Shown in pieces: positions 9,742 to 63,572 of a stretch of DNA of 64,000 nt. How positions within the stretch are numbered: position 1 is the stretch's first letter; each line of letters opens with the position of its first letter. The notes beneath the pieces were generated by a model. That model was given only the letters and a program-made list of their open reading frames with translations, was not told where the DNA came from and ran no database searches. The position numbers were made by a program, and so were the translations under genes. The DNA is from Nitrospira sp. (GTDB lineage: Bacteria; Nitrospirota; Nitrospiria; Nitrospirales; Nitrospiraceae), in contig SWDM01000023.1 of NCBI GenBank assembly GCA_005116835.1, forward strand, positions 286,519 through 350,518. Direction: 5' to 3'.

Positions 9742-10446
9742 ATGGTTTCAATCATTATCCCAGCCTATAACGAAGAAAAGGCGCTTCCTCACACGTTGAG
9801 CGAATTGCTCTGCCAGCCTGGCGACTACGAAGTCATCGTCGTCGATGGCGGCAGCACCGACCGCACCCACGCCGTCGTTCAAGATTTCTCTCTCAGCACT
9901 CAGCACTCAGCACTCCGGTCTTTTCGCTTCCTCGACGCTCCAAAGGGCCGCGCTTCCCAAATGAATGCCGGGGCCAAGGAGGCGGACGGAGAGTGGCTCC
10001 TCTTTCTCCATGCTGATACAGTCTTACCATCCGGGGCTATTCAACGACTGAACGGGATGGAGGCCGATCTCACGATTCAAGCAGGCGGTTTTATGCACCG
10101 ATTCTCCGGCGGCGATTGGCGGCTCAAGCTGATCTCGTTCCTCGATAATATCCGCTGCGTCCGCAGCCGAATCATCTACGGCGATCAGGCCCTCTTCGTC
10201 CGCCGCCCATTGTTCGAGCAGCTTGGCGGGTTTCCCAATCAGTCTATTCTGGAAGATGTCGCCTTCTGTGAAAAGCTCATCAATGTAACGAAGCCCCTGA
10301 TTCTGTCTCCATCCGTTGTGACCGACGCCCGTAAGTTTCTGAAAATGGGCGTGTGGCGTAGCTTCTTCCGCGTGCTCCTCATCATTCTCCATGTCGAGTT
10401 CCGCCTGCCGATCCTGCCTCGTTCGTTCTTCCAGGACGTGCGATAA
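9742..10446 (+). CDS. Family 2 glycosyltransferase, TIGR04283 type
   Basis: About 234 residues. The GT-A core shows SIIIPAYNEEKALPHTL, VIVVDGGSTDRTH, the family signature PKGRASQMNAGA, and LFLHADTVLP holding the metal-binding aspartate region; the acceptor side has GDQALFVRR and LEDVAFCEKL. TIGR04283 transferases were named for association with radical SAM/selenodomain proteins and later linked to arsenosugar biosynthesis. An oddity: residues encoded by 9889-9915 (LSTQHSALR) come from a short-repeat insertion, and the same nine residues occur in the unrelated helicase at about 38768. The start is the ATG at 9742; the upstream frame runs through a repeat. Confidence 0.85.
   Translation: MVSIIIPAYNEEKALPHTLSELLCQPGDYEVIVVDGGSTDRTHAVVQDFSLSTQHSALRSFRFLDAPKGRASQMNAGAKEADGEWLLFLHADTVLPSGAIQRLNGMEADLTIQAGGFMHRFSGGDWRLKLISFLDNIRCVRSRIIYGDQALFVRRPLFEQLGGFPNQSILEDVAFCEKLINVTKPLILSPSVVTDARKFLKMGVWRSFFRVLLIILHVEFRLPILPRSFFQDVR
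9889..9915 (+). repeat. In-gene CTCAGCA-type short repeat array
   Basis: Three and a half units of CAGCACT lie in frame within the glycosyltransferase gene, between the GGSTD block and the PKGRASQ block, lengthening a loop by about nine residues. No inverted partner is nearby. Confidence 0.7.
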
Positions 10447-19974: not shown

Positions 19975-20000
19975 GGGTGTTGGATATGCTGTCTGTGAAC

Positions 20001-20122
20001 AGGCTGTTCAAAATGATCGTCCAGCAAGGCCGCAGGCGGAGCAAGAACCGGAGGCGTACCCTTGGGGTACGTTGAGGATTCTTGCGAGCTGAGAACGCCG
20101 CTGGCGGGCTATTTCAACAGCC
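20001..20122. repeat. Core-hairpin element, copy 1
   Basis: A 122-base imperfect palindrome between convergent genes. The outer arms GGCTGTTCAAA and TTTCAACAGCC pair. The inner hairpin at 20041-20085 runs GCAAGAA, GGAGGCGTACCC, a TT loop, GGGGTACGTTGAGG, TTCTTGC. Copies 2 (25989-26114) and 3 (61929-62118) carry the same core in the opposite orientation with different outer stems. Confidence 0.8.
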
Positions 20123-20124
20123 GG

Positions 20125-20796
20125 CTAATTCAGCGAGGTGATGGACAACGACACTTCATTCGGCAGTAAAAGCGTCACATTCGCTTGATGCGTGGGGTCT
20201 GCTTGAATGAGGGCAAACAACGGCACGGGTTGGGGAGTTCTGCTCGGAGGCAAGGCCAGCAAAACCGGGAAGTCGAGCAGGGGCGATACCGTCGTCAGGC
20301 TGGCTAGGCGCAAGCGGAAGGCCATAAGGATATCGCGTACTCGGCTGGTCTGATCTTCTTCGGGGAGTGCTTGATCTGTGACAATTCCTACTTCCCAGAG
20401 CGGTCGGGTGATCGTGACAGGGAACGTGATGCCGAGTTGCAGGGCGGCAGGCGTCACGTCGATCAGGATCCCAGCCTGAATGGCCGCTTCCCGGTCGCGA
20501 ATGGCCGGGGGCATTGCAGTCTTCTCGACCAACTCCTGCCCAGCGACCTGTTCTTGCGCGATAGGCTCTTCAGATGGGAGAGGTTCGCTTTGGGTGGAAG
20601 GAGCCGATGCGGACTCTTCGACGTCAGACGGTGAGGAAATCAAGGCCTCTGTGTGAGGCATGGCCTTTACGATACCGTTGTAGATCGTGCGCGCCGAATC
20701 AGACCATGCATCATTAAAAGGGCGGCCTGCAAAGGCTGCGTCGGCAGCTTTCTTCTCGTCGTGGGTCAGGGCTTTGTGTGGTGGTGTAGTAGTCAT
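20125..20796 (-). CDS. Hypothetical cytoplasmic protein
   Basis: 223 residues, no signal or membrane segment. The N-terminal 50 residues are charged and helical (DEKKAADAAFAGRPFNDAW), followed by an acidic Ser/Pro/Glu/Gln linker, then a beta-rich C-terminal part (AGILIDVTPAALQLGITFPVTITRPLW and LPNEVSLSITSLN). No family recognised. It stands divergently from the DnaJ-domain gene, with the core-hairpin element beyond its stop. Confidence 0.65.
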   Translation of the reverse strand: MTTTPPHKALTHDEKKAADAAFAGRPFNDAWSDSARTIYNGIVKAMPHTEALISSPSDVEESASAPSTQSEPLPSEEPIAQEQVAGQELVEKTAMPPAIRDREAAIQAGILIDVTPAALQLGITFPVTITRPLWEVGIVTDQALPEEDQTSRVRDILMAFRLRLASLTTVSPLLDFPVLLALPPSRTPQPVPLFALIQADPTHQANVTLLLPNEVSLSITSLN

Positions 20797-20930: not shown

Positions 20931-21572
20931 ATGGCACGAATCGACTTCTACCGGGTGCTGGGGGTTTCTCGCGACGCGTCCGATGACGCGATTAAGAAGG
21001 CCTACCGCAAACTGGTATTTCAGCACCACCCAGACCGCAACCCCGATAGCGCACTTGCCGAATCCAAGATCCGTGAAATCAATGCAGCCTACGAAGTTGT
21101 GGGCGATCAGGACAAGCGCCGGACCTATGATCGGCTGAATTGGGGGGATGAGCCGGAACGGGATGAAGCGGCAGACCCAGCCGTCATCCTTGACGAGATG
21201 GAGCAGAAGCTCTTCGATGAAGGGCGCAAGGAAGTGTTTGCGGTCTTGATGAAAGACGTAAAGCGGATCAAAGCTGAACTCGCCGTGATTCGTGAACGAA
21301 CCGTGGCGGATCAAGGCTATGACACGTTCAAGGAAGCGATTATTCGGGAGCGGGCATCGGAGGTCATAGAAGAGTTGGTCACGGTTGAAATGGAGGGACG
21401 CAAGCAGCGGCTCGTCGAAGTGGCGACAGAGATGTTGCTGTCCCAGGGCGTGGTGAAACGAGACGATAAGGGAGGAGTCAGATCGCTACGAGGGCAGCTT
21501 GAGGATGTGTTCCGCAAGGGTCGGGCGAAGGGCTTTGCCGCGGCGCTGGAGCTGTTCTATGAAAGACGGTAA
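20931..21572 (+). CDS. J-domain (DnaJ-like) co-chaperone
   Basis: 213 residues. A J domain fills residues 4-65 ([27 protein letters not shown] at 33-35, then [21 protein letters not shown]) and would stimulate DnaK ATPase. There is no Gly/Phe region, zinc finger or substrate-binding barrel, so it is a type III J protein. The helical C-terminus (about 75-213, Glu/Lys/Arg-rich coiled-coil-like) is unrecognised and probably gives client specificity. No dnaK or grpE is adjacent. Confidence 0.85.
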
Positions 21573-21578
21573 CGAATA

Positions 21579-21664
21579 GTGCTGAGTTCTGAGTGCTGAG
21601 TTGCGAGTTCCAGGAGCTGGATTTCAAGACTCAGCACTTATAACTCAGAACTCATAACTCATTC
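21579..21664. repeat. Inverted repeat of ACTCAGCA-type short repeats
   Basis: The left arm 21579-21610 is GTGCTGAGTTCTGAGTGCTG followed by an AGTTGCGAGTTC segment. The right arm 21628-21664 is its complement type (GACTCAGCACTTATAACTCA then GAACTCATAACTC). It lies between converging DnaJ-like and amidohydrolase genes and may serve both as terminator. Confidence 0.75.
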
Positions 21665-24485: not shown

Positions 24486-25988
24486 ATGATCGAGCCAACC
24501 ACGGGGTTTTCCCCTGAGCCATCGCAGCCGACATCTTGGTGGCGAGCGGCCAATGTGCCGCCGACTATCGGGGTCTATGCCAGCCGGTTCTCGCCCATGG
24601 TCACGCTGCTGTCCGCGATCTTTCTCACGGTAGCCTTGGGATCGGTTGTCGGGCTATCGGTATCGGCATCGAAGTTGGATCGGATTGAGTCACCCGAGCA
24701 GGCCCTCAGTCTGATGGTCAGTCGGACCAGGGATGTCGAGGAAGGCCTCAAACGCGCCCCTCGGTGGGAACGGCAGCTCTTGGCATGGATATCTGGTGAC
24801 GACGAGGCGGAACGATCGCATGAGATCCAATGGTATCGCGAGTTGGCCGAGGTTTCTGAAGACCCGTTGGTGCCTCTTCAATTGGCGATTCTTCAAGCCG
24901 AAGCAGGCCATGTCTCGCAGGCGCTTCTCTCTGCTCATGATTGGGCTAAGGAGGATGATCCACTTCCTCAGTTTGCCGATCTGGTTATGGCGGCCTACGG
25001 AGAGGGGCCCGCTCAAGACGCGGACAGTTATGCCGTATGGCAAGCAGAGTTGGCAGAGGTCTTGCCATCCGGCTGGTTTTACGATCGCCTGGCGGAACGG
25101 TTGGCACAACGCGCGAACGATTCCGCTCTCGTGACGAGAATTCAGGAACAGGCCGCAGAGCGTGTCGACCGTCAGTTTGCCCGGTCGCATCGCCTCACCC
25201 TCGTTGAACTCGGCGCGATGGCCGTCGGCACCGTGGTGTGTGTGCTGCTTTGGGTAAAGCGGAAGGAAACGGTCAGTTTCGTTCGGCTGCATGAGCCGGG
25301 GGTCCCACCTCCTTGGCCCGGTGGTGTCGGCGCGGCTGTCTTGCTGCGTGGGGGCGCGATCGGCGCCATGCTCACGGCGCTGTTTTTACTATATGCTCCA
25401 CCGGACAATGTTTCGCTCCGGGCCTTGGCCATTCCGTTGACGAATGTGCCGCTGCTTCTCTTGGCCTATCGCCATCTCTTCCGTCCGTCGGGCATGACAT
25501 TCGATGAAGGATTCGGGCTGGAAATCGGATGGGCTCGTACTGGTCGCTTAGCGCTAGCTGTGTTGGCGGTGGTGGCAGCCGGTTTATGGGGTGGGTGGAT
25601 CATGGATCGCTTGTCTGAAGCTCTCCATCAGACCAGCCACTGGGCCGAATGGTTCGATGCCGATCTCGTCTGGGCCACTCCCTCCCTCACAGTGGTAAGT
25701 CTCCTTGAGTATGTCGTCTTTGCCCCGCTGTTCGAAGAATTGGCGTTTCGTGGATTGCTGTTTGCGATTCTACGACGAAAGTTCAGTTTTCTACCGGCCG
25801 CGTTGATCAGTGCAGGGGTCTTCGGCATCGCCCATGGCTATGGATGGGTGGGGCTTCTGAGTGTCTGTTGGAGCGGAGTGCTCTGGGCTTGGATCTATGA
25901 AAAGACCGGCAGCATCTTGCCCGGCATTCTCGCCCATGCGATCAACAATTTGCTGGTGTGCTTAGCCGTAATGGCCCTCCTCCGTTAG
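24486..25988 (+). CDS. CPBP-family intramembrane metalloprotease (CAAX-like)
   Basis: 500 residues. The N-terminus has one TM helix (about 38-62), followed by about 180 soluble helical residues (TPR-like, EDPLVPLQLAILQAEAGHVSQALL), then a membrane domain with about seven helices. The three catalytic motifs of CPBP proteases are intact: EELAFR (EExxxR), FGIAH (FxxxH) and HAINN (HxxxN). Substrates in bacteria are mostly unknown; some members process anti-sigma factors or prenylated or exported peptides. The large soluble N-terminal domain is unusual for the family. Copy 2 of the core-hairpin element follows the stop at once. Confidence 0.88.
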   Translation: MIEPTTGFSPEPSQPTSWWRAANVPPTIGVYASRFSPMVTLLSAIFLTVALGSVVGLSVSASKLDRIESPEQALSLMVSRTRDVEEGLKRAPRWERQLLAWISGDDEAERSHEIQWYRELAEVSEDPLVPLQLAILQAEAGHVSQALLSAHDWAKEDDPLPQFADLVMAAYGEGPAQDADSYAVWQAELAEVLPSGWFYDRLAERLAQRANDSALVTRIQEQAAERVDRQFARSHRLTLVELGAMAVGTVVCVLLWVKRKETVSFVRLHEPGVPPPWPGGVGAAVLLRGGAIGAMLTALFLLYAPPDNVSLRALAIPLTNVPLLLLAYRHLFRPSGMTFDEGFGLEIGWARTGRLALAVLAVVAAGLWGGWIMDRLSEALHQTSHWAEWFDADLVWATPSLTVVSLLEYVVFAPLFEELAFRGLLFAILRRKFSFLPAALISAGVFGIAHGYGWVGLLSVCWSGVLWAWIYEKTGSILPGILAHAINNLLVCLAVMALLR

Positions 25989-26114
25989 CAGGCTTGTGAA
26001 AACGGTCCCCAACGTCGTTCTCGGGTCGTCAAAATCCTCAACGTACCCCCAGAGGGTACGCCTCCGGTTTTGACTCGCCTGTGGCCTAGTTGGATGACCG
26101 TTTTGACAAGCCTG
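25989..26114. repeat. Core-hairpin element, copy 2
   Basis: A 126-base palindrome between convergent genes. The outer stem CAGGCTTGTGAAAACGGTC / GACCGTTTTGACAAGCCTG is 17 of 19 paired. The inner hairpin at about 26031-26071 is TCAAAATCCTCAACGTACCC, a short loop, then GGGTACGCCTCCGGTTTTGA. Confidence 0.85.
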
Positions 26115-26930: not shown

Positions 26931-27028
26931 TCAATCCCCCAAATCCGTAAGGCCAACCCATCTTTTCACAGTTGCATAATACGGCACAACTGTTGCGTCA
27001 ATAAGGAATTCGCAGGAGAATGCCTCAT

Positions 27029-28441
27029 ATGAAATCCATTGCGTCTGTGCTGTCGGTTATTGCTCTCGGACTCGCACTCTTCAGCTGCTCAGGTGGCGGG
27101 GGCGGCGGCGGGGGCAGTACCCAGGCGTTTGCCGTGTCGACGACCGCAGCCGACTTCGGTGTGGTTGACAATGCCTATACGTCGACTCTCGCGACCACTG
27201 GAGGAACGGCTCCATTCACCTGGACGCTGTTCGGCGGAGTCTTGCCGACTGGCTTACCTGCTTTTTCCATCGATCCAGGCACGGGTGTCGTGAGCGGTAC
27301 TCCGACTGTAGCAGACAATTTCACTGCGACATTTACTGTAACGGACAGCGCAGGTCAAACCGCGACAGGCTCAGTGCTGTTTGCTATCCATCCAAGGACG
27401 GATCGCGTCTCGGTGAATAGCAGTGGAACGGCAGGGAATGGGACGAGTACTGAGCCCGCCATCAGTAGCGCTAACGGTCGTTTCATCGCGTTCACTTCAT
27501 TGGCGACCCTGGCACCGACTCCAGGTGGGAGTGGTGCTCAGATTTTTGCGCATGATCGTCAAACAGGTCAACCCAGCTTGGTTTCTATAAATAGCATTGG
27601 CAATGCTGGTGATGGGGCAAGCAGCCAACCCACCATCAGCGCCGACGGTCGCTATGTTGCATTCACGTCAGTTGCTCCAAACTTAGCGCCCATTCCTGGG
27701 GCAATCGGCTCTCAAATTTTTCTACGCGATACGCAGAGCAACACGACCGTACTTGTGTCGCAGGACGCGGTTGGCAACGCCGGCAACGGCGCGAGCAGTG
27801 AACCCACCATCAGCGCTGACGGCCGTTTTGTTGCCTTTACGTCCGCTGCTACCAATCTGGCACCGATTATTGGCGGTAGTGGCTCCCAGATTTTCCTTCG
27901 CGATACTCAGGCCAATCAAACTATTCTGGTGTCGCGGGATACTATGGGCAATGCCGGCAACGGCGCAAGCAGTGAGGCCACTATCAGTGGCAACGGTCAG
28001 TTTGTTGCCTTCACGTCGCAAGCGACGAATCTGGCATCGCTTGTGGGAGGAAGCGGCTCTCAGATTTTCCTCCGGGACACGATCGGCAACGCCACTACGT
28101 TGGTGTCGCGGGATACCACGGGCAATGCCGGCAACGGGGCAAGCAGTCACCCCACGATAGGTGCCACGAATGGGCAATTTGTTGCCTTCACTTCTTTGGC
28201 TACCAACTTGGCGGCTACTCTCGGAGGGAGTGGCTCTCAAATCTATCTTCGCGACACGCAAGGAAATCAAACGAGCCTTGTGTCGAAGGACAATAGCGTT
28301 CCCGCTAACGCCGGTAACGGCGCAAGTAGCGCTCCTGCAGTCGTCGGAGACGGCGGGTTCGTTGCGTTTGCTTCAGGAGCAGCAACCCTGGTCTCTGGAG
28401 GTAATGCCGCTTCGCAGGTCTACGTGAGGGCGATGCCGTAA
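27029..28441 (+). CDS. Lipoprotein with He_PIG/Ig-like domain and PD40 (TolB-like) repeats
   Basis: About 470 residues. A lipoprotein signal (IALGLALFSC) is followed by a poly-Gly linker, then a putative Ig domain of the He_PIG type (GGTAPFTWTLFGGVLPTGL, GTGVVSGTPT). From residue about 125 to the end are six near-identical units of about 56 residues (PTISADGRYVAFTS, then SQIFLRDTQ and LVS), matching the WD40-like PD40 propeller repeat. A six-bladed propeller on the cell surface or in the periplasm is likely. ATG 27029 is preferred because AGGAG is too close to ATG 27020. Confidence 0.82.
   Translation: MKSIASVLSVIALGLALFSCSGGGGGGGGSTQAFAVSTTAADFGVVDNAYTSTLATTGGTAPFTWTLFGGVLPTGLPAFSIDPGTGVVSGTPTVADNFTATFTVTDSAGQTATGSVLFAIHPRTDRVSVNSSGTAGNGTSTEPAISSANGRFIAFTSLATLAPTPGGSGAQIFAHDRQTGQPSLVSINSIGNAGDGASSQPTISADGRYVAFTSVAPNLAPIPGAIGSQIFLRDTQSNTTVLVSQDAVGNAGNGASSEPTISADGRFVAFTSAATNLAPIIGGSGSQIFLRDTQANQTILVSRDTMGNAGNGASSEATISGNGQFVAFTSQATNLASLVGGSGSQIFLRDTIGNATTLVSRDTTGNAGNGASSHPTIGATNGQFVAFTSLATNLAATLGGSGSQIYLRDTQGNQTSLVSKDNSVPANAGNGASSAPAVVGDGGFVAFASGAATLVSGGNAASQVYVRAMP
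27570..28300 (+). repeat. In-gene tandem repeats of about 168 bases
   Basis: Consecutive units share long near-identical DNA blocks (GGCAATGCCGGCAACGG, CAGATTTTCCTTCGCGA-type), encoding the propeller blades. DNA-level similarity indicates recent duplication or recombination between blades. The 248-base stretch that follows the gene, 28442-28689, shows no recognisable feature. Confidence 0.7.
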
Positions 28442-36902: not shown

Positions 36903-39900
36903 ATGCCGCCGATGCCCCTCTCTCGATTTCATCCTCTCATCGCCGAATGGTTTATGTCGTCCGTCGGGACTCCTACCGATGTCCAGGCTCAGGCCTGGCC
37001 GGCCATTCAGTCGGGGGTCGATGTGCTGATTGCCGCGCCGACCGGGTCCGGCAAGACGTTCGCCGCATTTCTCTCCTGCATCGATCGTCTGTTCAAACAA
37101 GCACTAGCCTGTGAACTCGATGACCAAACCCAGGTACTCTACGTGTCGCCGCTGAAAGCGCTCAGCAACGATATCCAGAAGAATCTTCAGCAGCCACTGG
37201 CTGAAATCGGTGCCGCAGCCCTGTCTGCCGGGCTCTTAATGCCGGAACTCCGTGTACTGGTCCGCACCGGAGACACGCCGATGACGGAGCGCCAGCAGAT
37301 GCTCAAGCGTCCGCCCCATATCCTTGTGACCACACCGGAGTCGCTGTTCATCTTACTGACAGCAGAGAAGAGTCGGCGCCTTTTGCAGACGGTTCGGACC
37401 GTCATCGTCGATGAAATCCACGCCGTTGTTCCGAATAAACGCGGCGCGCATCTGGCTCTGTCGCTGGAGCGATTGGAAGCGCTAACGCTGACGAAACCGC
37501 AACGTATCGGGCTTTCCGCGACGCAACGGCCGATTGAAACCATCGCTCAATTTTTGGTCGGGAACCGGGACTCGTCAACCGTTAATCGTCAACGGTCAAA
37601 CGTCTCCAACTCAGCACTCAGCCCTCAGCACTTTCCGTTGGCGATCGGTTCTTCCCCCTGCACCATCATCGACATAGGCCACAAGCGTGAGATGGATCTG
37701 GCTGTGGAGGTACCGAAAGATGAGCTGAGCGCCGTGGCCACGAACGCCATTTGGGCCGATGTTTACGATCGCATCGCCGAACTGGTCCGGCAGCATCGCT
37801 CGACCCTGGTATTCGTCAATACAAGGCGCCTCGCTGAACGTGTGTCCCACTCCCTGGAAGAACGGCTATTGGACTTAGGCGCCGATGCCGTTGCAGCGCA
37901 CCATGGCAGCCTCTCGCGCCAAATTCGTTTGTCGGCTGAAGAACGGCTCAAGAGCGGCAAGACGCGCGTCGTCGTTGCCACTGCTTCGCTGGAACTGGGC
38001 ATCGATATCGGGGCAGTGGATCTCGTTTGTCAGATCGGTTCACCCCGCGCGATTGCCACCTGCCTACAACGGGTTGGCCGGGCCGGTCACTGGATCAAGG
38101 CGATTCCCAAGGGCCGCCTCTTTGCCATGACGAGAGATGACTTGCTCGAATGTGCGGCGCTGGTGCGTGCCATTCGGACCGGAGTTTTGGATCGCATCGC
38201 TGTGCCGCCCGCTCCGCTCGATATTTTGGCGCAACAGTTAGTGGCAGCTGCGGCGACGCAGACTTGGCAGGAAGATGACCTGTTCGATCTCTGCCGACGG
38301 GCCGACCCCTATCGGGCCTTGACCCGTTCGGAGTTCGATCAAGTATTGCGGATGTTGGCGGATGGGATTGCGACTAATCGTGGGAGAGGTCTGGCCTACC
38401 TGCATCACGATCGGATTAATCGTTGCATCAAAGGCCGACGAGGGGCTCGATTGGCAGCAATCACGTCCGGCGGGGCCATTCCTGACACAGCGAACTATGC
38501 AGTGGTCGCTGAGCCTGAAGGTACGGTCGTGGGATCGGTCGATGAAGACTTTGCGGTGGAGAGTCTGGCCGGCGACATCATGTTGCTAGGCAATACCTCC
38601 TGGCGCATCAAGGGCGTGGAGAAGGGTAAAGTGCGGGTGGAAGACGCCCATGGAGCACCACCCAACATTCCCTTCTGGCGGGGCGAAGCCCCGTCGCGGA
38701 CGGCAGAACTGTCGGCTGAAGTCGCTAGGCTCCGGAGCGATCTCGACCATCTCCTCTTCTCCGAAGATCCACTCAGCACCCAGCACTCAGCACTTCGCTG
38801 GCTCCGCGAAGAGTGCAGTCTCGATCAGCGAGGCGCGCAGCAGGCCATCGAATATGTGTTGGCAGGTAAGGCTGTGATTGGAACCATTCCGACGCAGCAA
38901 ACGATCGTCGCTGAGCGGTTCTTCGATGAAAGCGGCGGGATGCAGCTGGTCTTGCACACGCCCTTCGGTGGCCGGATCAATCGCGCCTGGGGCCTCGCCT
39001 TGCGGAAGCGGTTCTGTGTGACCTTCGATTTTGAATTGCAAGCTGCGGCGACTGACAACGGGATCGTGATCTCCCTCGGAGAGAAGCACAGTTTCCCGCT
39101 CGATGCTGTGTTCGGGTTCCTGCATAGCCAGACACTTCGCGAGGTCTTGCTTCCTGCCGTGCTTCAGGCGCCGATGTTCATGACGCGCTGGCGATGGAAT
39201 GTCAGCCGCGCCTTGGTCTTATTGCGGTTCTCCAACGGGAAAAAAGTTCCCCCGCAGATTCAACGGATGAAGGCGGAGGATCTGCTTGGTTCCGTCTTTC
39301 CCGACGCAATTGCCTGTCAGGATAATATAGTCGGCGAGCGGACTCGCCAGATTCCGGATCATCCGCTTGTGAACGAGACTTTGCGGGACTGTTTCACTGA
39401 GGCGATGGACCTGGACGGGTTGATTGCGGTCCTCAAGCAAATTGAAGCGGGAGCTATAAGGTGCGTAGCGGTTGATACACCGATGCCCTCTCCTTTCTCG
39501 CATGAGATCTTGAATGCCAACCCCTATGCCTTTCTCGACGACGCTCCGCTGGAAGAGCGGCGGGCGCGGGCGGTGGAAATGCGGCGTACGTTGCCGGCTC
39601 AACTGGCCGGCGAGGTCGGGGCGCTGGACCCGGCAGCGATTGAGGAGGTGCAACGGGAATCCTGGCCCATCGTGCGCGATCCGGATGAACTGCACGATGC
39701 CCTGCTCACTCTCGTATGGGTTCCCGATGCATCAGCGATTGATTGGGCAGCGTTTTTCCCGCCGCTTATAGAGTCTGGGCGCGTTGTGCATATGTCTTTC
39801 CCCTCGCCTCACCCCTCACCCCTCACCCCTGACGAATTGAGAGGATGGGTGGCCAAGGAAAATCAGGCCCGAGTTGAAACGATGTTGGCAAATGGCGACG

Positions 39901-41375
39901 AGGCGACACTAGATGTCATTCTGCTCGGTTGGTTGGAGAGTATCGGACCGACCACGGTAGCTGAGTTGGCCCAACGGCTCGATCTCTCTGCTGAAGACGT
40001 GAACAGCTCCATGGTACGCCTCGAAGTTTCCGGGCAAGTCCTCAGAGGCCAGTTCCGACCCGCGGGCCTAATTCAAAATTCAAAATTCAAAATTGAAAAT
40101 TCTGGCGCGGCTAACGCCGCGCCCGAGTGGTGTCACCGCCGTCTCCTCGCTCGCATTCATCGTCTGACCATCGGCAGACTTCGAAAAGAAGTCGAGCCAG
40201 TGACCGCGGCTGAGCTCATGCAATTCCTATTTCAATGGCAGCATGTTGCACCCGGGTCGCGTCTCCATGGCGAGGCAGGTCTCTTGGGGATTGTCGCCCA
40301 GTTGGCTGGCTTTGAAGCTGCAGCGTCGGCTTGGGAACCGCATCTGCTTCGCACGAGGCTGGCGAAGTATCAGCCGGAGCTGTTGGATCGGCTCTGTCTG
40401 AGCGGGGCGGTCAGCTGGGGCAGGCTATCTCCTCACCCGCGGCTTGGTCAGGCCGGCGATCTTGGACGACGCCGAATTATCCCGACGAGTGCGGCGCCCA
40501 TTAGCATCTTCCCGCGTGAGGAGGGCGAATGGTTGATGAATGTCTTCTGCGATCAGGCCGAATCTGCTGGGCCCGATCCGTTTGATCAGTTGAGTGCGGT
40601 GGCGCAAGACCTGCGTCGTACTCTGCAGGAGCGAGGCGCAAGCTTCTTTGCCGACCTTGTGAGGATGACCAGTCATCTTCCAGCAGAAGTGGAGGAAGGA
40701 CTCTGGGAACTGGTGGCAGCTGGGCTCGTCACAGCCGACGGTTTCGACAATCTCCGTGCCCTCAGGGACCCACACCGTCGACGTGCGGAAGGGCGGGAGC
40801 GGTCTCGACGTCCGAGACATTCAGCTGGTCGATGGTCGCTGCTGGGACAAGCGTTCAGCCATCAGCCATCAGCCGTCAGCTCCGAGCGCGTGGCTTCAGC
40901 CACCTCACCCCTTACCCCTCACCCCTCACGCTCGGTCGAGCCCATGGCTCGTCAATTATTGCGTCGCTACGGCATCGTCTTCCGTGACCTGCTGGCGCGT
41001 GAGTCGCTGGTTCAGTCCTGGCGCGACCTGCTGGTCCAGTACCGTCGGATGGAATTGCAGGGCGAGATCCGTGGGGGGCGATTCGTGAGCGGCTTTACAG
41101 GGGAGCAATTCGCGCTGCCTGAAGCGGTCGAATCGTTACGGGCGATACGCAATAGAAATGAATCCGGCAGTACCTCTCACGAGATCAAGTTGTCTGCCAG
41201 CGATCCGTTGAATCTCGCAGGAGTGATCTTGCCTGGTCCTCGCGTACCGGCTGTTTCGACGAATTATCTCGTGTTTCGTGATGGAGTGGTGGCGCGAGCT
41301 GTGATCGGGCGGGAAGCGAGAGGCGGGGAGGCTGACCCTGGTGGCAGCCTCCCCGCCGTGGCCCGTTCGAGATAG
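36903..41375 (+). CDS. lhr: Lhr-type large DEAD/DEAH helicase
   Basis: 1490 residues, near the length of E. coli Lhr (about 1540). RecA1 has AAPTGSGKTFAAFLS (Walker A), VDEIHAV and SATQRP; RecA2 has TLVFVNTRRLAERV, ELGIDIGAVDLVCQIG and QRVGRAGH. The winged-helix, Lhr-beta-barrel and long C-terminal regions follow. Lhr enzymes are 3'-5' DNA/RNA-hybrid helicases in genome maintenance. Oddly, the frame is interrupted by five in-frame short-repeat insertions at about residues 224-244, 623-632, 966-977, 1056-1067 and 1317-1343, all outside the motor motifs, presumably in surface loops. Confidence 0.9.
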   Translation: MPPMPLSRFHPLIAEWFMSSVGTPTDVQAQAWPAIQSGVDVLIAAPTGSGKTFAAFLSCIDRLFKQALACELDDQTQVLYVSPLKALSNDIQKNLQQPLAEIGAAALSAGLLMPELRVLVRTGDTPMTERQQMLKRPPHILVTTPESLFILLTAEKSRRLLQTVRTVIVDEIHAVVPNKRGAHLALSLERLEALTLTKPQRIGLSATQRPIETIAQFLVGNRDSSTVNRQRSNVSNSALSPQHFPLAIGSSPCTIIDIGHKREMDLAVEVPKDELSAVATNAIWADVYDRIAELVRQHRSTLVFVNTRRLAERVSHSLEERLLDLGADAVAAHHGSLSRQIRLSAEERLKSGKTRVVVATASLELGIDIGAVDLVCQIGSPRAIATCLQRVGRAGHWIKAIPKGRLFAMTRDDLLECAALVRAIRTGVLDRIAVPPAPLDILAQQLVAAAATQTWQEDDLFDLCRRADPYRALTRSEFDQVLRMLADGIATNRGRGLAYLHHDRINRCIKGRRGARLAAITSGGAIPDTANYAVVAEPEGTVVGSVDEDFAVESLAGDIMLLGNTSWRIKGVEKGKVRVEDAHGAPPNIPFWRGEAPSRTAELSAEVARLRSDLDHLLFSEDPLSTQHSALRWLREECSLDQRGAQQAIEYVLAGKAVIGTIPTQQTIVAERFFDESGGMQLVLHTPFGGRINRAWGLALRKRFCVTFDFELQAAATDNGIVISLGEKHSFPLDAVFGFLHSQTLREVLLPAVLQAPMFMTRWRWNVSRALVLLRFSNGKKVPPQIQRMKAEDLLGSVFPDAIACQDNIVGERTRQIPDHPLVNETLRDCFTEAMDLDGLIAVLKQIEAGAIRCVAVDTPMPSPFSHEILNANPYAFLDDAPLEERRARAVEMRRTLPAQLAGEVGALDPAAIEEVQRESWPIVRDPDELHDALLTLVWVPDASAIDWAAFFPPLIESGRVVHMSFPSPHPSPLTPDELRGWVAKENQARVETMLANGDEATLDVILLGWLESIGPTTVAELAQRLDLSAEDVNSSMVRLEVSGQVLRGQFRPAGLIQNSKFKIENSGAANAAPEWCHRRLLARIHRLTIGRLRKEVEPVTAAELMQFLFQWQHVAPGSRLHGEAGLLGIVAQLAGFEAAASAWEPHLLRTRLAKYQPELLDRLCLSGAVSWGRLSPHPRLGQAGDLGRRRIIPTSAAPISIFPREEGEWLMNVFCDQAESAGPDPFDQLSAVAQDLRRTLQERGASFFADLVRMTSHLPAEVEEGLWELVAAGLVTADGFDNLRALRDPHRRRAEGRERSRRPRHSAGRWSLLGQAFSHQPSAVSSERVASATSPLTPHPSRSVEPMARQLLRRYGIVFRDLLARESLVQSWRDLLVQYRRMELQGEIRGGRFVSGFTGEQFALPEAVESLRAIRNRNESGSTSHEIKLSASDPLNLAGVILPGPRVPAVSTNYLVFRDGVVARAVIGREARGGEADPGGSLPAVARSR
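37573..37634 (+). repeat. In-gene short repeats, Lhr site 1
   Basis: Two families are adjacent: GTCAACCGTTAATCGTCAAC plus GGTCAAACGTC (37573-37604), then AACTCAGCACTCAGCCCTCA plus GCACTTT (37608-37634). They encode an extra loop rich in Ser, Asn and Gln between RecA1 motif III and the RecA linker region. Confidence 0.7.
38771..38795 (+). repeat. In-gene ACTCAGCA-type repeat, Lhr site 2
   Basis: ACTCAGCACCCAGCACTCAG plus CACTT encodes LSTQHSAL, the same peptide as in the glycosyltransferase repeat at 9889-9915. Confidence 0.7.
39800..39833 (+). repeat. In-gene ACCCCTC-type repeat, Lhr site 3
   Basis: Heptamer units CACCCCT and CCTCACC, four copies, encode PSPHPSPLTP. The same family lies at 40901-40931 and 53824-53861. 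Confidence 0.7.
40070..40102 (+). repeat. In-gene AATTCAAA-type repeat, Lhr site 4
   Basis: AATTCAAAATTCAAAATTCA continuing into AAATTGAAAATTC is strikingly AT-rich within a GC-rich gene; it encodes IQNSKFKIENS. A second array of the family is at 52194-52227. Confidence 0.75.
40853..40931 (+). repeat. In-gene CAGCCAT- and ACCCCTC-type repeats, Lhr site 5
   Basis: GTTCAGCCATCAGCCATCAG plus CCGTCAGC (40853-40880), then CACCTCACCCCTTACCCCTC plus ACCCCTCACGC (40901-40931). Both are read in frame and add about 25 Ser/Pro/His-rich residues. Confidence 0.7.
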
Positions 41376-50782: not shown

Positions 50783-52183
50783 TTACCGATCGAGGATCAA
50801 ATCGATGGTGATCTGAGCGAGCGATGAATCTTGATTGATGACGTAGGTCGCGCGTTCCGGTGATTTCTCTGCCCCGCTTGGCGTGATAGATTCTTGGAGT
50901 TGGTTGAGAGAGAGCCGGTTACGCGAGGCAATCTCTCGCTTGGTGAATAGCCCTAACGGGATTCGGGCGAGGTGGACTGTCAGGGTGATGGGCCCGTTCT
51001 CTTTGGCAAGAGGAACCTGCTGCCGTTGTCCAGGGGAAATTTTCAAGGAACTTTGGCCGGTTTCTTTTTGAGGCCATAACGGTTGTGGAGTGGAAGAACC
51101 AACGATCTTCCATATCTGTACATAGGCATCCTGATTGGCTTCCACGGTAAGAAATACCGGCTGAATACTCGTTGAGGCCGCACCTGCATCCACCTCTTGA
51201 TCCTGCCCATCGGTCCCACGAACGACAAAACTGTAGCGGAGTCCCAGAGGCCCCGGTTGGGCCGCTGTGACTCCGCTGGTGCCTACCTGTGAAGGCCCTT
51301 CCAGCGGTCGTTCAAGCCTGCCTGCTTGCGGCGACGATTCGGCCAGAGGCTTCATGGTCTGCTCTTTGGCCATCAAGCGCGTATCGGTTTTGGTTGTCTC
51401 TCCTCCGTAGAACAAGGCACGAGCGCCGGCGATCGGTGTGACGGTACCAGCGATTTGTCCACTAGCTGGCGTTTGTCTCTGTCTTGGCTCCGGCGCTGTG
51501 GTTGATGGTGTAGGGCTCGCTACAAGTTTTTGGTCTGCCAAGGAGGCCACTTCTTCCGTAAGTTTTTCTTGCCCAGCTGCGGGAGATTTAGCTTCTCTCA
51601 GAAATTCGTCTTGCCGGCTTCGCTGTTTTAGCCTGTCTTGTCCAATATTAGCGGTTTGTTCTTTCTTTGATGGAGGAGATGCGGCCCGTTCTGGCATGGA
51701 CAACTTCCCGACCAGCATGTCTCTTTCTGGAAGCTCGCTCGACGGATCTAGGTTCTCTTTCGTCTTTGCCCGGAGTTCTTTAGCTTGAGGAGTCACCGAT
51801 GGAGGCAGAGGAATGGCCTCATCGGTCGCTGTCGATTGTGCCGCCTGTCGCAGACTATCCTGATATATCCTGACGCCCAACACCAAAGAGAGGGCTGCCG
51901 CCGTAAGGCCTCCAGCGAGCGCAAAGCCGGCTGGACGGCGGAACCAATCCAGCCATGACAGAGAACCGTCAGCGCCTGTGGTGCTCTTCTGTTCCAACGA
52001 AGCGAGTAGTCTGCGGCGCACGGCTGGATTGGAGAGCAGCTCTTTGAATGCCTGTTCATCCGCAATGGCGTTAAAGAGTTGCTGATCCTGCAATGCGGCC
52101 GTATAGAGCGCCTGCTTCTCCTCCGGCGTCAGCGTATCTGCCGCAAATCCACCCAGTAGTTTTTCGAGATCGTGTTCAGACAT
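50783..52183 (-). CDS. Anti-sigma-factor-like protein with DUF4384-like domain
   Basis: 466 residues. The N-terminus (EHDLEKLLGGFAADTLTPEEKQALY) resembles the cytoplasmic inhibitory part of anti-sigma factors. One TM helix follows at about 92-112 (FALAGGLTAAALSLVLGVRI). A disordered periplasmic stretch of about 190 residues rich in Ser, Gln, Pro and Glu precedes a C-terminal beta domain (RYSFVVRGTDGQDQEVDAG, VFLTVEANQDAYVQIWKIVG) similar to DUF4384. It starts 57 bases downstream of the sigma-factor gene, with a short AATTCAAA repeat between. Confidence 0.75.
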   Translation of the reverse strand: MSEHDLEKLLGGFAADTLTPEEKQALYTAALQDQQLFNAIADEQAFKELLSNPAVRRRLLASLEQKSTTGADGSLSWLDWFRRPAGFALAGGLTAAALSLVLGVRIYQDSLRQAAQSTATDEAIPLPPSVTPQAKELRAKTKENLDPSSELPERDMLVGKLSMPERAASPPSKKEQTANIGQDRLKQRSRQDEFLREAKSPAAGQEKLTEEVASLADQKLVASPTPSTTAPEPRQRQTPASGQIAGTVTPIAGARALFYGGETTKTDTRLMAKEQTMKPLAESSPQAGRLERPLEGPSQVGTSGVTAAQPGPLGLRYSFVVRGTDGQDQEVDAGAASTSIQPVFLTVEANQDAYVQIWKIVGSSTPQPLWPQKETGQSSLKISPGQRQQVPLAKENGPITLTVHLARIPLGLFTKREIASRNRLSLNQLQESITPSGAEKSPERATYVINQDSSLAQITIDLILDR

Positions 52184-52193
52184 AGCCTAGAGA

Positions 52194-52227
52194 CAATTCA
52201 AAATTAAAAATTCAAAATTATTAATTG
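52194..52227. repeat. AATTCAAA-type short repeat array
   Basis: CAATTCAAAATTAAAAATTC followed by AAAATTATTAATTG fills most of the gap between sigma and anti-sigma genes. It is very AT-rich and partly self-complementary. Same family as the Lhr insertion at 40070-40102. Confidence 0.7.
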
Positions 52228-52741: not shown

Positions 52742-53770
52742 CTACAGAGGTTGTGACGATTGAGGAGGCGTGATGACGTCACTCAGAGATCGAAACCCAA
52801 GCTTCAGCCCATTACAGACCTCGACTTGCCGATCGAAGCGGTTTTTGGTCCGGACCATCTTGAGTAGTGTGCCGAAGGCCACGCGGCCCCAGGCGGCGAG
52901 GTGGAACACGGATAGTGGATAGTCGGTGCCGAAGAGCAGTCGCTCCTGGATGTCAGGATATTGGCGGAGGTGTAGGAGCATCCGGAGACGGTTCGGCAGC
53001 GTGAGGGCGGAGATATCGGCGTAGAAGTGTGGATAGCGCTCGACGAGGTCGCGCAATGTCGGGAGAAACTTTTCAAAAAGGATGAGGCCGTAGCTGCAGG
53101 CATGGGCAGCGATGACTGTGGCCCCTTCATCCAACGCGACTCTGAGTCGTTCGGGGTCGCCGACCGATTGATCCTTCCCGATGAGACTGAATTCGTAGCC
53201 CACGTGGCTGAGGAAGGGCATTTTCCTCTCGGCGAGAGCCCGATAGAAGGCTTTGTAGCGCGGATCTGACGGGTTGAACTGCTGCGCGTTGGGCAGCACT
53301 TTGACCAGTGTGGCTCCGGCGTCGGCGCAACGGTGTACTTCTTCAACCGCATCTTGCCGCTGTGGATTGATCGAGACACCCGCGAGCAATTCGTTCGGAT
53401 GGGCCTTCGCGGTTTTGAGCACATAGTCGTTGCCGACCAGGAGATCTGTGTGGTCCAGGCTGAGCCTGCCGTTGGAATCGTAATGGCCATCCATGCCGAG
53501 GAGCACAGCCTTTTGCACGTGGCGAGAGGCGCGTAATTCTGTTAGGAGATCGTCGAGATATTTCTGATTGGCCTCGCGCGGTTTGTCCGGGGCAAGCTCA
53601 TGTTTCCACAGCAAGAACCGAAACAGCGGGCTCTTGAGCATTTTCGGCGAGATATAGCAGCCGTTGTCTCCATCCGGCAATGCAGCCAGATGCACATGGC
53701 AATCGATCAACGATTTCTCGGTCGTAACTCGTGAAGCGTCATTCGTGAAACGTCGTTCGTGAAGAGCCAT
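52742..53770 (-). CDS. Amidohydrolase-2-type metal-dependent hydrolase
   Basis: About 342 residues. DCHVHL near residue 23 is the HxH metal site; other ligands are in LSHVGYEF, AAHACSYG and the final LLFGTDYPLS Asp. This is the TIM-barrel amidohydrolase-2 group (decarboxylase/TatD-like relatives); the substrate is unknown. The first about 20 residues (ERRFTNDASRVT) are encoded by a GTGAAACGT-type repeat, so the true start may be downstream, or repeat insertion has replaced the original N-terminus. Three bases separate it from the sigma gene. Confidence 0.8.
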   Translation of the reverse strand: MALHERRFTNDASRVTTEKSLIDCHVHLAALPDGDNGCYISPKMLKSPLFRFLLWKHELAPDKPREANQKYLDDLLTELRASRHVQKAVLLGMDGHYDSNGRLSLDHTDLLVGNDYVLKTAKAHPNELLAGVSINPQRQDAVEEVHRCADAGATLVKVLPNAQQFNPSDPRYKAFYRALAERKMPFLSHVGYEFSLIGKDQSVGDPERLRVALDEGATVIAAHACSYGLILFEKFLPTLRDLVERYPHFYADISALTLPNRLRMLLHLRQYPDIQERLLFGTDYPLSVFHLAAWGRVAFGTLLKMVRTKNRFDRQVEVCNGLKLGFRSLSDVITPPQSSQPL

Positions 53771-53861
53771 CAGCAGTCAGCCCTCAGCTTTCCAAGCAAC
53801 TCAGAACTCAGAACTCAGAACCTCTCCCACCCCTTACCCCTCACGCCTTACCCCTCACGTG
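53722..53861. repeat. Composite array of four short-repeat families
   Basis: Four families follow one another: GTGAAGCGT-type (53722-53765), GCCATCAGCAGTCAGCC-type (53766-53792), ACTCAGA-type (53798-53822) and ACCCCTTACCCCTCACG-type (53824-53861). The array covers the start of the amidohydrolase gene and the stop of the acyltransferase-ligase gene, whose last codons (AGREG-like end) it supplies. Confidence 0.8.
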
Positions 53862-61884: not shown

Positions 61885-61928
61885 AGAGCCGACCTTACTG
61901 GATGGGGCGGTCCTCGTCAATCACCTAG

Positions 61929-62118
61929 CCCGCATGATTCATGAACGCTTCTGCTGCAATCGCCGATCCGCTGCTGCGACAAGCCTTCGGTCGGCGGGCT
62001 CGCCCATCGGACCCTCAACGTACTGCACGAGTACGCCTCAGGTCCTCCGGGCTCCGCGCGCCGCTCTCGCGACGCGGCTCAGCGATTTCGCGGCGAACCG
62101 TCATGAAGCATGCGGGCT
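61929..62118. repeat. Core-hairpin element, copy 3
   Basis: The outer arms AGCCCGCATGATTCATGAAC (61929-61948) and its complement (62099-62118) bracket a 190-base element. Its core at 62011-62045 is CCCTCAACGTACTG, then CACGAGTACGCCTCAGG, the same core as copies 1 and 2. Here the element lies between divergent genes and reaches to 10 bases before the prmA ATG. Confidence 0.75.
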
Positions 62119-63009: not shown

Positions 63010-63500
63010 TGACCGAAAATGGACGACCTCCATATTCCCACCTGCACCAAATCAATGTATCGGATGGAGGTGTGCCGAAATGGCCGGTACTGGAGGCCCT
63101 CATCACCAAGGCGGGAATCGAGGGCGACCGGCAACAGAACCTGAAAGCACATGGCGGGCCCGATCGCGCGGTCTGTCTCTATTCGCAAGAGCTGATTGAG
63201 CGGTTGCAGGATGAGGGCCACTCAATCGAGGCCGGTTCCTCCGGAGAGAACCTGACGCTTGCCGGGCTTGAGTGGGAGAAGTTGAAACCCGGCGATCTGC
63301 TTGAGGTGGGGCCAGAGGTCAAGCTCGAAGTCACGAGTTATACCAGTCCTTGCGAGAAGAATGCCCAGTGGTTCCGGGAGAGAGACTTCAAGCGAGTGTC
63401 CCAGAAAATAAATCCAGGATGGAGTCGGCTCTACGCGAAAGTGCTGCGCGAGGGGGTGGTGAGACCGGGGGATGAAGTGGTGATTGAAAGGAAGGAATAG
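63009..63500 (+). CDS. MOSC-domain protein
   Basis: 163 residues. The MOSC fold is shown by HLHQINVSDGGVPKWPV, GIEGDRQQNLKAHGGPDRAV, CLYSQELIERL, EAGSSGENLTL and the conserved cysteine in TSPCEKNA. The family carries sulfur or molybdopterin ligands for the detoxication of N-hydroxylated bases (YiiM-like). Coupled to prmA by overlap (TGATG). Substrate unknown. Confidence 0.87.
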   Translation: MTENGRPPYSHLHQINVSDGGVPKWPVLEALITKAGIEGDRQQNLKAHGGPDRAVCLYSQELIERLQDEGHSIEAGSSGENLTLAGLEWEKLKPGDLLEVGPEVKLEVTSYTSPCEKNAQWFRERDFKRVSQKINPGWSRLYAKVLREGVVRPGDEVVIERKE

Positions 63501-63502
63501 CT

Positions 63503-63572
63503 ATCAGTTGTCAGCCATCAGCGTTCAGTTTCCGATACCGGATGACTTGCTGATGGCTGAATGCTGATAGCA
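63503..63572. repeat. Inverted repeat of CAGCCAT-type short repeats
   Basis: The left arm 63500-63528 (GCTATCAGTTGTCAGCCATC onwards) pairs with the right arm 63548-63572 (TGCTGATGGCTGAATGCTGA then TAGC). The outer eight bases GCTATCAG / CTGATAGC are perfect. It separates the MOSC gene from the last gene, 8 bases before whose ATG it ends. Confidence 0.75.

What the first reader, a model, noticed from the sequence alone, without database searches (positions are those of the whole stretch)
20001..20122. Three dispersed elements share a core hairpin but have different, self-complementary outer stems
Copies at 20001-20122, 25989-26114 and 61929-62118 all contain CTCAACGTAC ... GTACGCCTC around a short loop. 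The outer stems differ in sequence (GGCTGTT..., CAGGCTTGTG..., AGCCCGCATG...), yet in each copy the two arms pair. A conserved core plus covarying outer stem is what selection on RNA or DNA secondary structure gives. Two copies lie between convergent genes, one between divergent genes.
Basis: partly seen in the sequence, partly recalled or inferred. Interest (0 to 1): 0.75.

Follow-up and report, generated by a model that had tools for sequence, protein, structure and literature searches.

The report
Palindromic mobile elements sharing a hairpin
The three repeats are copies of small jumping DNA elements, present more than a hundred times in this Nitrospira-like genome, whose folded hairpin core with covarying stems recurs in very distant bacteria, so the fold itself is probably being maintained even though the elements code for nothing.

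Summary
The core pattern occurs 3 times in the window (0 in 100 shuffles), 72 times exactly in the whole genome and at least 127 times by covariance model. Each copy folds into a long imperfect hairpin. Across 59 copies, 23 of 47 pairs change on both sides and no measure was reached in 500 shuffles, while three unpaired motifs stay constant. The window copies are two kinds of miniature mobile element. Copies 1 and 2 (type A) have ends of an ISAzs10-like IS5 insertion sequence: a Nitrospira defluvii IS has an identical 17-base terminal repeat and the same YTAR target duplication. Copy 3 (type B) is a 192-bp palindrome with other ends and CTAG flanks. Both carry the same hairpin core. The same core and architecture form multi-copy families in Rokubacteria, Geobacter, Peptococcaceae, gut Clostridia, Treponema vincentii and a candidate-phylum genome. 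The RAYT idea is not supported: 0 of 32 Y1 transposase loci carry the element and four host genomes have no such gene. Close copies differ mainly by pair-breaking changes, distant ones by compensated changes, so the constraint probably acts on spreading lineages. What binds the hairpin, as DNA or RNA, remains unknown.

The parts
20000..20124 (-). Copy 1: type A hairpin element, 125 nt; its left end is at 20124
   Evidence: alignments A1/A3 and model R1, 115.7 bits; fold z -4.3
20051..20076 (-). Conserved core of copy 1 (CTCAACGTAC ... GTACGCCTC)
   Evidence: exact pattern match
20125..20128 (-). YTAR-type left flank of copy 1 (TTAG), overlapping the stop codon of ORF 20125-20796
   Evidence: sequence and ORF list
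25989..26114 (+). Copy 2: type A hairpin element, 126 nt
   Evidence: model R1, 133.1 bits; fold z -8.1; site occupied in 27 congeners
25985..25988 (+). YTAR-type left flank of copy 2 (TTAG), overlapping the stop codon of ORF 24486-25988
   Evidence: sequence and ORF list
26037..26064 (+). Conserved core of copy 2
   Evidence: exact pattern match
61927..62118 (+). Copy 3: type B palindromic element, 192 bp, with ends AGCCCGCATGATTCATGAA / TTCATGAAGCATGCGGGCT
   Evidence: end search and alignment A2; fold z -6.4
62014..62039 (+). Conserved core of copy 3
   Evidence: exact pattern match

Best explanation
The repeats are short non-autonomous mobile DNA elements (MITE-like) of at least two kinds that carry the same structured hairpin module. 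Shown: complete type A elements have terminal inverted repeats and a 4-bp YTAR target duplication matching ISAzs10-like IS5-family insertion sequences; type B elements have other palindromic ends with CTAG flanks. The target tetramer often overlaps a TAG or TAA stop codon, so many insertions lie just behind genes. Shown: the hairpin stems vary but stay complementary, while three unpaired motifs (the G.G mismatch in TGAAAA/TTTTGA, CGTT/GCCTNG, and CTCAA/CCTC next to the apical stem) are largely conserved in sequence and spacing, the last two across several phyla. Inferred: an IS5-type transposase supplied in trans moves type A. Inferred: the folded single strand, more likely DNA (replication, excision or cruciform) than sense-strand RNA, is recognised at the unpaired motifs, and only lineages that keep the fold go on spreading; resident copies then decay.
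For: 72 exact and at least 127 modelled copies in one genome. Covariation: 23 pairs with both-sided changes, 0/500 shuffles; across 32 sequences of several phyla 8 of 11 predicted pairs. Ends: CTAG-179 nt-CTAG in 22 of 23 near-identical Peptococcaceae copies (one of them with 176 nt between); in the own genome 23 of 59 copies keep the right end, 9 with identical YTAR tetramers, shuffle P 0.003. YTAR at 30 of 59 left ends against 0.36% of positions. N. defluvii IS with perfect TIR CAGGCTGCGGAAAAAC and TTAG duplication, IS5-family transposase; ISAzs10 with CAGGMCGCGGAAAAA and TTAG duplication. Type A inserted into the CTAG of type B at three places. Decay of close copies and compensation between distant ones: 78% pair-breaking or mending at 94-97% identity, 42% compensated at 60-85%.
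Against: No matching autonomous IS was found in the window's own genome. Most own copies lack a recognisable right end (36 of 59). The ends of the Clostridia, Treponema and Uhrbacteria elements are unresolved, so an IS5 origin is shown only for Nitrospira, Rokubacteria and, by YTAR flanks and similar ends, Peptococcaceae. One type B form without the interior exists, so the core is not needed for that family's presence. The protein or process that would read the hairpin is not identified. The site of copy 2 is occupied in 27 species, which could also mean a host use.
Confidence: 0.7

Rival explanations
1. Host-used RNA element: the hairpin acts in transcripts at 3' ends of genes (RNase processing site, stabiliser or terminator), as reported for Correia and ERIC elements, and is kept at its sites for that reason.
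For: Many copies abut stop codons (25 of 59 at the left end), lie in ribosomal-protein operons of Clostridia and, by inspection, behind tRNA or 23S rRNA 3' ends in Uhrbacteria; one site is occupied in 27 species with pairing arms. RNase III cleavage is reported for Correia-element transcripts and an RNase E effect for ERIC at 3' ends (PMC10969869).
Against: The stop-codon placement follows from the YTAR target and is orientation-neutral in young copies (6 left, 7 right of 20). Close copies mostly break pairs. Non-consensus sense-strand G.U cells are fewer than C.A cells (15 against 69).
Confidence: 0.17
2. REP-like elements moved by a RAYT (Y1 transposase).
For: Palindromic, intergenic, high copy number; Y1_Tnp genes occur in 12 of 16 host genomes and 3 times in the own genome.
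Against: 0 of 32 Y1_Tnp loci have the element nearby; no Y1_Tnp in T. vincentii, which has 30 copies, nor in three other hosts; the elements are 125-192 nt with target duplications, not 20-40 nt with a GTAG or CGTC tag.
Confidence: 0.04
3. No selection on structure: arm-to-arm copying by template switching (quasi-palindrome correction) keeps arms complementary.
For: Long inverted repeats are known hot spots for such copying (own knowledge). Occupants of the orthologous site fall into discrete classes, and some loci hold parts of two classes side by side.
Against: Mismatches at fixed places survive between distant genomes (G.G, CGTT/GCCT, CTCAA/CCTC), where correction would remove them. Changes between close copies are mostly uncorrected.
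Confidence: 0.07

Closest known systems
ISAzs10-like IS5-family insertion sequences and MITEs derived from IS elements
   Same: Type A right end identical over 17 bases to the N. defluvii IS end; YTAR 4-bp target duplication; no coding content expected in 125-200 bp
   Different: The IS has no hairpin. The hairpin core is shared with type B, which has other ends, and with elements of distant phyla whose ends are not IS5-like or are unresolved
REP / REPIN elements with RAYT transposases (GTAG and CGTC superfamilies)
   Same: Palindromic intergenic repeats in high copy, superfamilies spread over several phyla (PMC3733652)
   Different: 125-192 nt instead of 20-40, target duplications, no constant tag, no RAYT beside any copy tested
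Correia/NEMIS and ERIC elements
   Same: Short mobile palindromes that fold as long hairpins and lie between genes (PMC10969869; general knowledge)
   Different: Other ends and hosts; stems here covary around conserved unpaired motifs; processing by RNases not tested. Sequence comparison with these families was not run
Multicopy nucleotide sequences of Geobacter genomes
   Same: Intergenic multicopy families, some palindromic, described in G. metallireducens and G. bemidjiensis (PMC2700814, PMC2996986). One has the palindrome GRCGTAGCGCTGCTACGCC, which resembles this core
   Different: Their alignments are in supplementary files I could not read, so identity is not established
TD-1 and TD-2 RNAs (Rfam RF03155, RF03162)
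   Same: Neighbours of the element in Treponema vincentii, sometimes directly after its apical sequence
   Different: A different structure and sequence; the Rfam models match beside the element

Membership tests
MITE of the IS5 family (type A) | Terminal inverted repeats matching an autonomous IS | tested here: met
   17 of 17 bases with the N. defluvii IS, similar to ISAzs10; not found in the own genome
MITE of the IS5 family (type A) | Short target duplication at both ends | tested here: met
   YTAR tetramers: 22 of 23 CTAG/CTAG in Peptococcaceae; 9 of 23 identical in the own genome, P 0.003
MITE of the IS5 family (type A) | Mobilised in trans by the IS transposase | not testable with these tools
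   needs a transposition assay
MITE of the IS5 family (type B) | Ends matching an autonomous IS | tested here: inconclusive
   192-bp palindromes with CTAG flanks; no IS with these ends seen among the end pairs under 3 kb that were examined
REP/RAYT element | RAYT (Y1_Tnp) gene flanked by the repeat | tested here: not met
   0 of 32 loci
REP/RAYT element | Y1_Tnp gene in element-bearing genomes | tested here: not met
   absent from 4 of 16, including complete T. vincentii
REP/RAYT element | 20-40 nt palindrome with unpaired GTAG or CGTC tag at one end | tested here: not met
   length 125-192; left tetramers vary (GTAG in 4 of 59)
Any Rfam 15 RNA family | Match to the covariance model | tested here: not met
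   no match in the window at gathering thresholds; in loci of other genomes only neighbouring TD-1/TD-2 and two low, implausible miRNA-family matches below their gathering scores
Integron attC site | Complementary R boxes RYYYAAC ... GTTRRRY | tested here: not met
   by inspection of A3 and A6: CTCAAC faces GCCTC, not GTTRRRY
Correia/NEMIS, ERIC | Sequence identity to these families and RNase processing | not tested
   considered as functional analogues only

The most novel reading that the evidence does not exclude
The hairpin core is an independent structured module with its own trans-acting partner, present across distant bacterial phyla including candidate-phylum bacteria, that has been carried by different mobile ends (IS5-like, type B and others) and whose conserved internal loops are read in folded single-stranded DNA or RNA.
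Probability: 0.3. Interest if true: 0.85.

Novelty: new variant of a known kind. Interest (0 to 1): 0.62.

Why it matters
MITEs are usually read as decayed leftovers of one insertion sequence. Here one hairpin with fixed internal loops and freely covarying stems recurs on two different sets of ends in one genome and in genomes of very distant phyla. If that holds, the fold does something for the element that its end sequences alone do not, and the three unpaired motifs at fixed spacing give a concrete object for finding the protein that reads it. It would also name a large class of unannotated intergenic repeats in Nitrospira and relatives and explain why many sit at stop codons.

Tried and rejected
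RAYT partner: tested over 32 loci, rejected. PF01609 transposases of the own genome and of Peptococcaceae as partner: no matching ends. Plasmid and phage records: no match for one query each. Viral contigs: 4 exact core matches, none reported by the model search that included them; treated as chance or coding sequence. Rfam: none for the element itself. Literature by sequence string and by name: nothing that describes the family; the held library lacks most subscription journals, so this is weak evidence of novelty. Sense-strand RNA function by wobble asymmetry: leans against, but inconclusive because much of the excess lies in a few columns. A left-end bias at stop codons in the own genome (25 left, 1 right hairpin end) looked like an RNA signal, but the young copies in G067 show both orientations and own copies with a tail put the right end about 75 nt further out, so I dropped it.

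Full report
OBSERVATION. The three copies exist at the stated places. The core pattern occurs exactly three times in the window and never in 100 dinucleotide shuffles. Each copy folds better than 200 of 200 shuffles (z -4.3, -8.1, -6.4). Copies 1 and 2 lie between convergent and copy 3 between divergent ORFs, most with clear Pfam domains.

FAMILY IN THE GENOME. The whole genome (3.94 Mb, unnamed; inferred to be Nitrospira because the same elements are found in records named Nitrospira) holds 72 exact cores and none of the reversed control pattern. I fetched them with flanks and aligned 59 type A copies. A covariance model finds 127 matches at E up to 0.01, a lower bound because only 150 candidates were scored. 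It finds matches in 59 of 61 genomes searched (the own one included), in all 16 genera.

STRUCTURE. The consensus is a hairpin of about 125 nt with 47 pairs. 88.9% of cells pair (82.1% in shuffles, 42% or less when slid), 23 pairs have changes on both sides (11.6 in shuffles), the covariation score is 0.183 against 0.070, and 0 of 500 shuffles reach any measure. Examples: columns 45-82 GC 31, AT 26, CG 1; columns 5-124 AT 42, CG 11, GC 2, TA 1. What does not vary is unpaired: the G.G mismatch inside TGAAAA/TTTTGA, CGTT facing GCCT, and CTCAA facing CCTC beside the apical stem.

TWO KINDS OF ELEMENT. Type A (copies 1 and 2) continues in complete copies into a tail of roughly 60-75 nt and a right end TTTTTCCGCAGCCTG, the inverted counterpart of the left end CAGGATGCTGAAAAA. 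23 of 59 copies keep the right end, and in 9 of these the flanking tetramers are identical (shuffle P 0.003). The left tetramer is YTAR in 30 of 59, against 0.36% of positions. In Peptococcaceae BRH_c4a, 23 near-identical copies show the ends sharply: CTAG on both sides in 22, 179 nt between (176 in one). Type B (copy 3) is a 192-bp palindrome with ends AGCCCGCATTATTCATGAA, 113 such ends in the genome at up to 3 mismatches, and CTAG flanks. Some type B copies have the core in the covarying form CATAC/GTATG; a 72-bp form has lost the interior and another has a different interior. Type A sits in the CTAG of type B at three separate places.

PARTNER OF TYPE A. In Nitrospira defluvii a 1316-bp IS has perfect ends CAGGCTGCGGAAAAAC, one end identical over 17 bases to the right end of the type A element, and a TTAG duplication. 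Its 342-aa transposase belongs to the IS5 family (NF033581, 278.9 bits, cut-off 140; PF05598 and PF01609). ISAzs10 of Azospirillum (65% identical protein) has ends CAGGMCGCGGAAAAA and a TTAG duplication. The IS itself has no match to the hairpin model. No such IS was found in the window's own genome. YTAR contains TAG or TAA, which explains copies directly behind stop codons. In the young Peptococcaceae copies 6 of 20 have an ORF's stop codon at the left end and 7 of 20 at the right end, so orientation is not fixed at insertion.

OTHER PHYLA. It lists Nitrospira and also Rokubacteria, Geobacter, Desulfuromonadales, Acidobacteria, Peptococcaceae, gut Clostridia, Treponema vincentii (complete genome) and an Uhrbacteria genome. 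Some single hits must be chance at this pattern length. The model built from the Nitrospira copies nevertheless recovers the full architecture in most of the non-Nitrospira loci tested, and the genomes hold it as multi-copy families: N. defluvii 116, Rokubacteria 79, Treponema 30-31, Peptococcaceae 27, Uhrbacteria 16-18, Clostridia 11-16 (one Clostridia genome only 1). Outer stems are genome- or copy-specific while the unpaired motifs and their spacing are kept. An alignment of 32 inner hairpins has 8 of 11 predicted pairs with both-sided changes, including the apical stem (GTAC/GTAC, GTGC/GCAC, GTAT/ATAC). Rokubacteria elements have IS5-like ends with YTAR flanks in several copies. Ends in Clostridia, Treponema and Uhrbacteria are not resolved. 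Some hits are draft bins and could be misbinned; the complete T. vincentii genome and the genome-specific stems argue against that as a general explanation.

WHERE THE CONSTRAINT ACTS. At the site of copy 2, 27 Nitrospira genomes carry an element directly behind the same gene, with stems of several distinct classes. Own arms pair at 0.86-0.95 and swapped arms at 0.69-0.77. Within the genome, copies 94-97% identical differ mostly by one-sided changes that break or mend a pair (78%; 14% compensated), while distant copies differ by compensated changes in 42%. I read this as decay of resident copies and selection on lineages that continue to spread; gene conversion or renewed insertion at a hot spot could also contribute at the orthologous site. 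Sense-strand G.U pairs outside one consensus column are rarer than C.A (15 against 69), which does not favour a sense RNA. Other repeats (a hairpin plus GGGGTGGGCGGGTGA in Nitrospira, TD-2 RNAs in Treponema) lie in the apical loop, which would fit an extruded DNA hairpin. This part is inference.

VERDICT. The elements are mobile-type, structured and widespread. Type A has ends of ISAzs10-like IS5 elements. The RAYT interpretation fails its tests. What the shared hairpin does, and what reads it, is the open and interesting part.

Noticed in passing
L011 1686-2045, L012 1674, L031 2462, L397 2279, L418 2280; also L007 1579, L390 2317: A second REP-like repeat (a palindrome followed by GGGGTGGGCGGGTGA) lies inside the hairpin element, often exactly in its apical loop, otherwise at GCCTTGC in the right arm.
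   Followed up: partly
L341-L360 (Treponema vincentii): TD-1 or TD-2 RNAs (Rfam) lie within about 350 nt of the element in 9 or more of 13 loci; several TD-2 copies follow CTCAACGTATCAG directly, as if placed in the apical loop.
   Followed up: partly
whole genome G000; window 61927-62118: Type B ends AGCCCGCATTATTCATGAA occur 113 times at up to 3 mismatches, including interior-deleted and core-less forms.
   Followed up: partly
L063, L064, L065 (own genome): Three Y1_Tnp genes are bounded by other repeats (for L064 GGGGACAGGCTAC / GTAGCCTGTCCCC; for L065 a GGTCAGTTCTTGACTTTGCAC-like sequence), not by this element.
   Followed up: no
window 9898-9926, 21571-21603, 37594-37639, 38771-38799, 39801-39834, 40070-40115, 40845-40930, 52181-52226, 53723-53859, 63494-63547: Short intergenic tandem-like repeats of several kinds (CAGCACTCAGCACT, CACCCCTCACCCCT, AATTCAAAATTC, GTGAAGCGTCGTTCGTG) recur on both strands.
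   Followed up: no
window 27020-28441: ORF with several tandem copies of a 174-nt unit, about 65-75% identical.
   Followed up: no
L193 and L119: A Geobacter draft bin and a Nitrosospira-named bin each hold a Nitrospira-like element at over 100 bits; recent transfer or misbinning.
   Followed up: no
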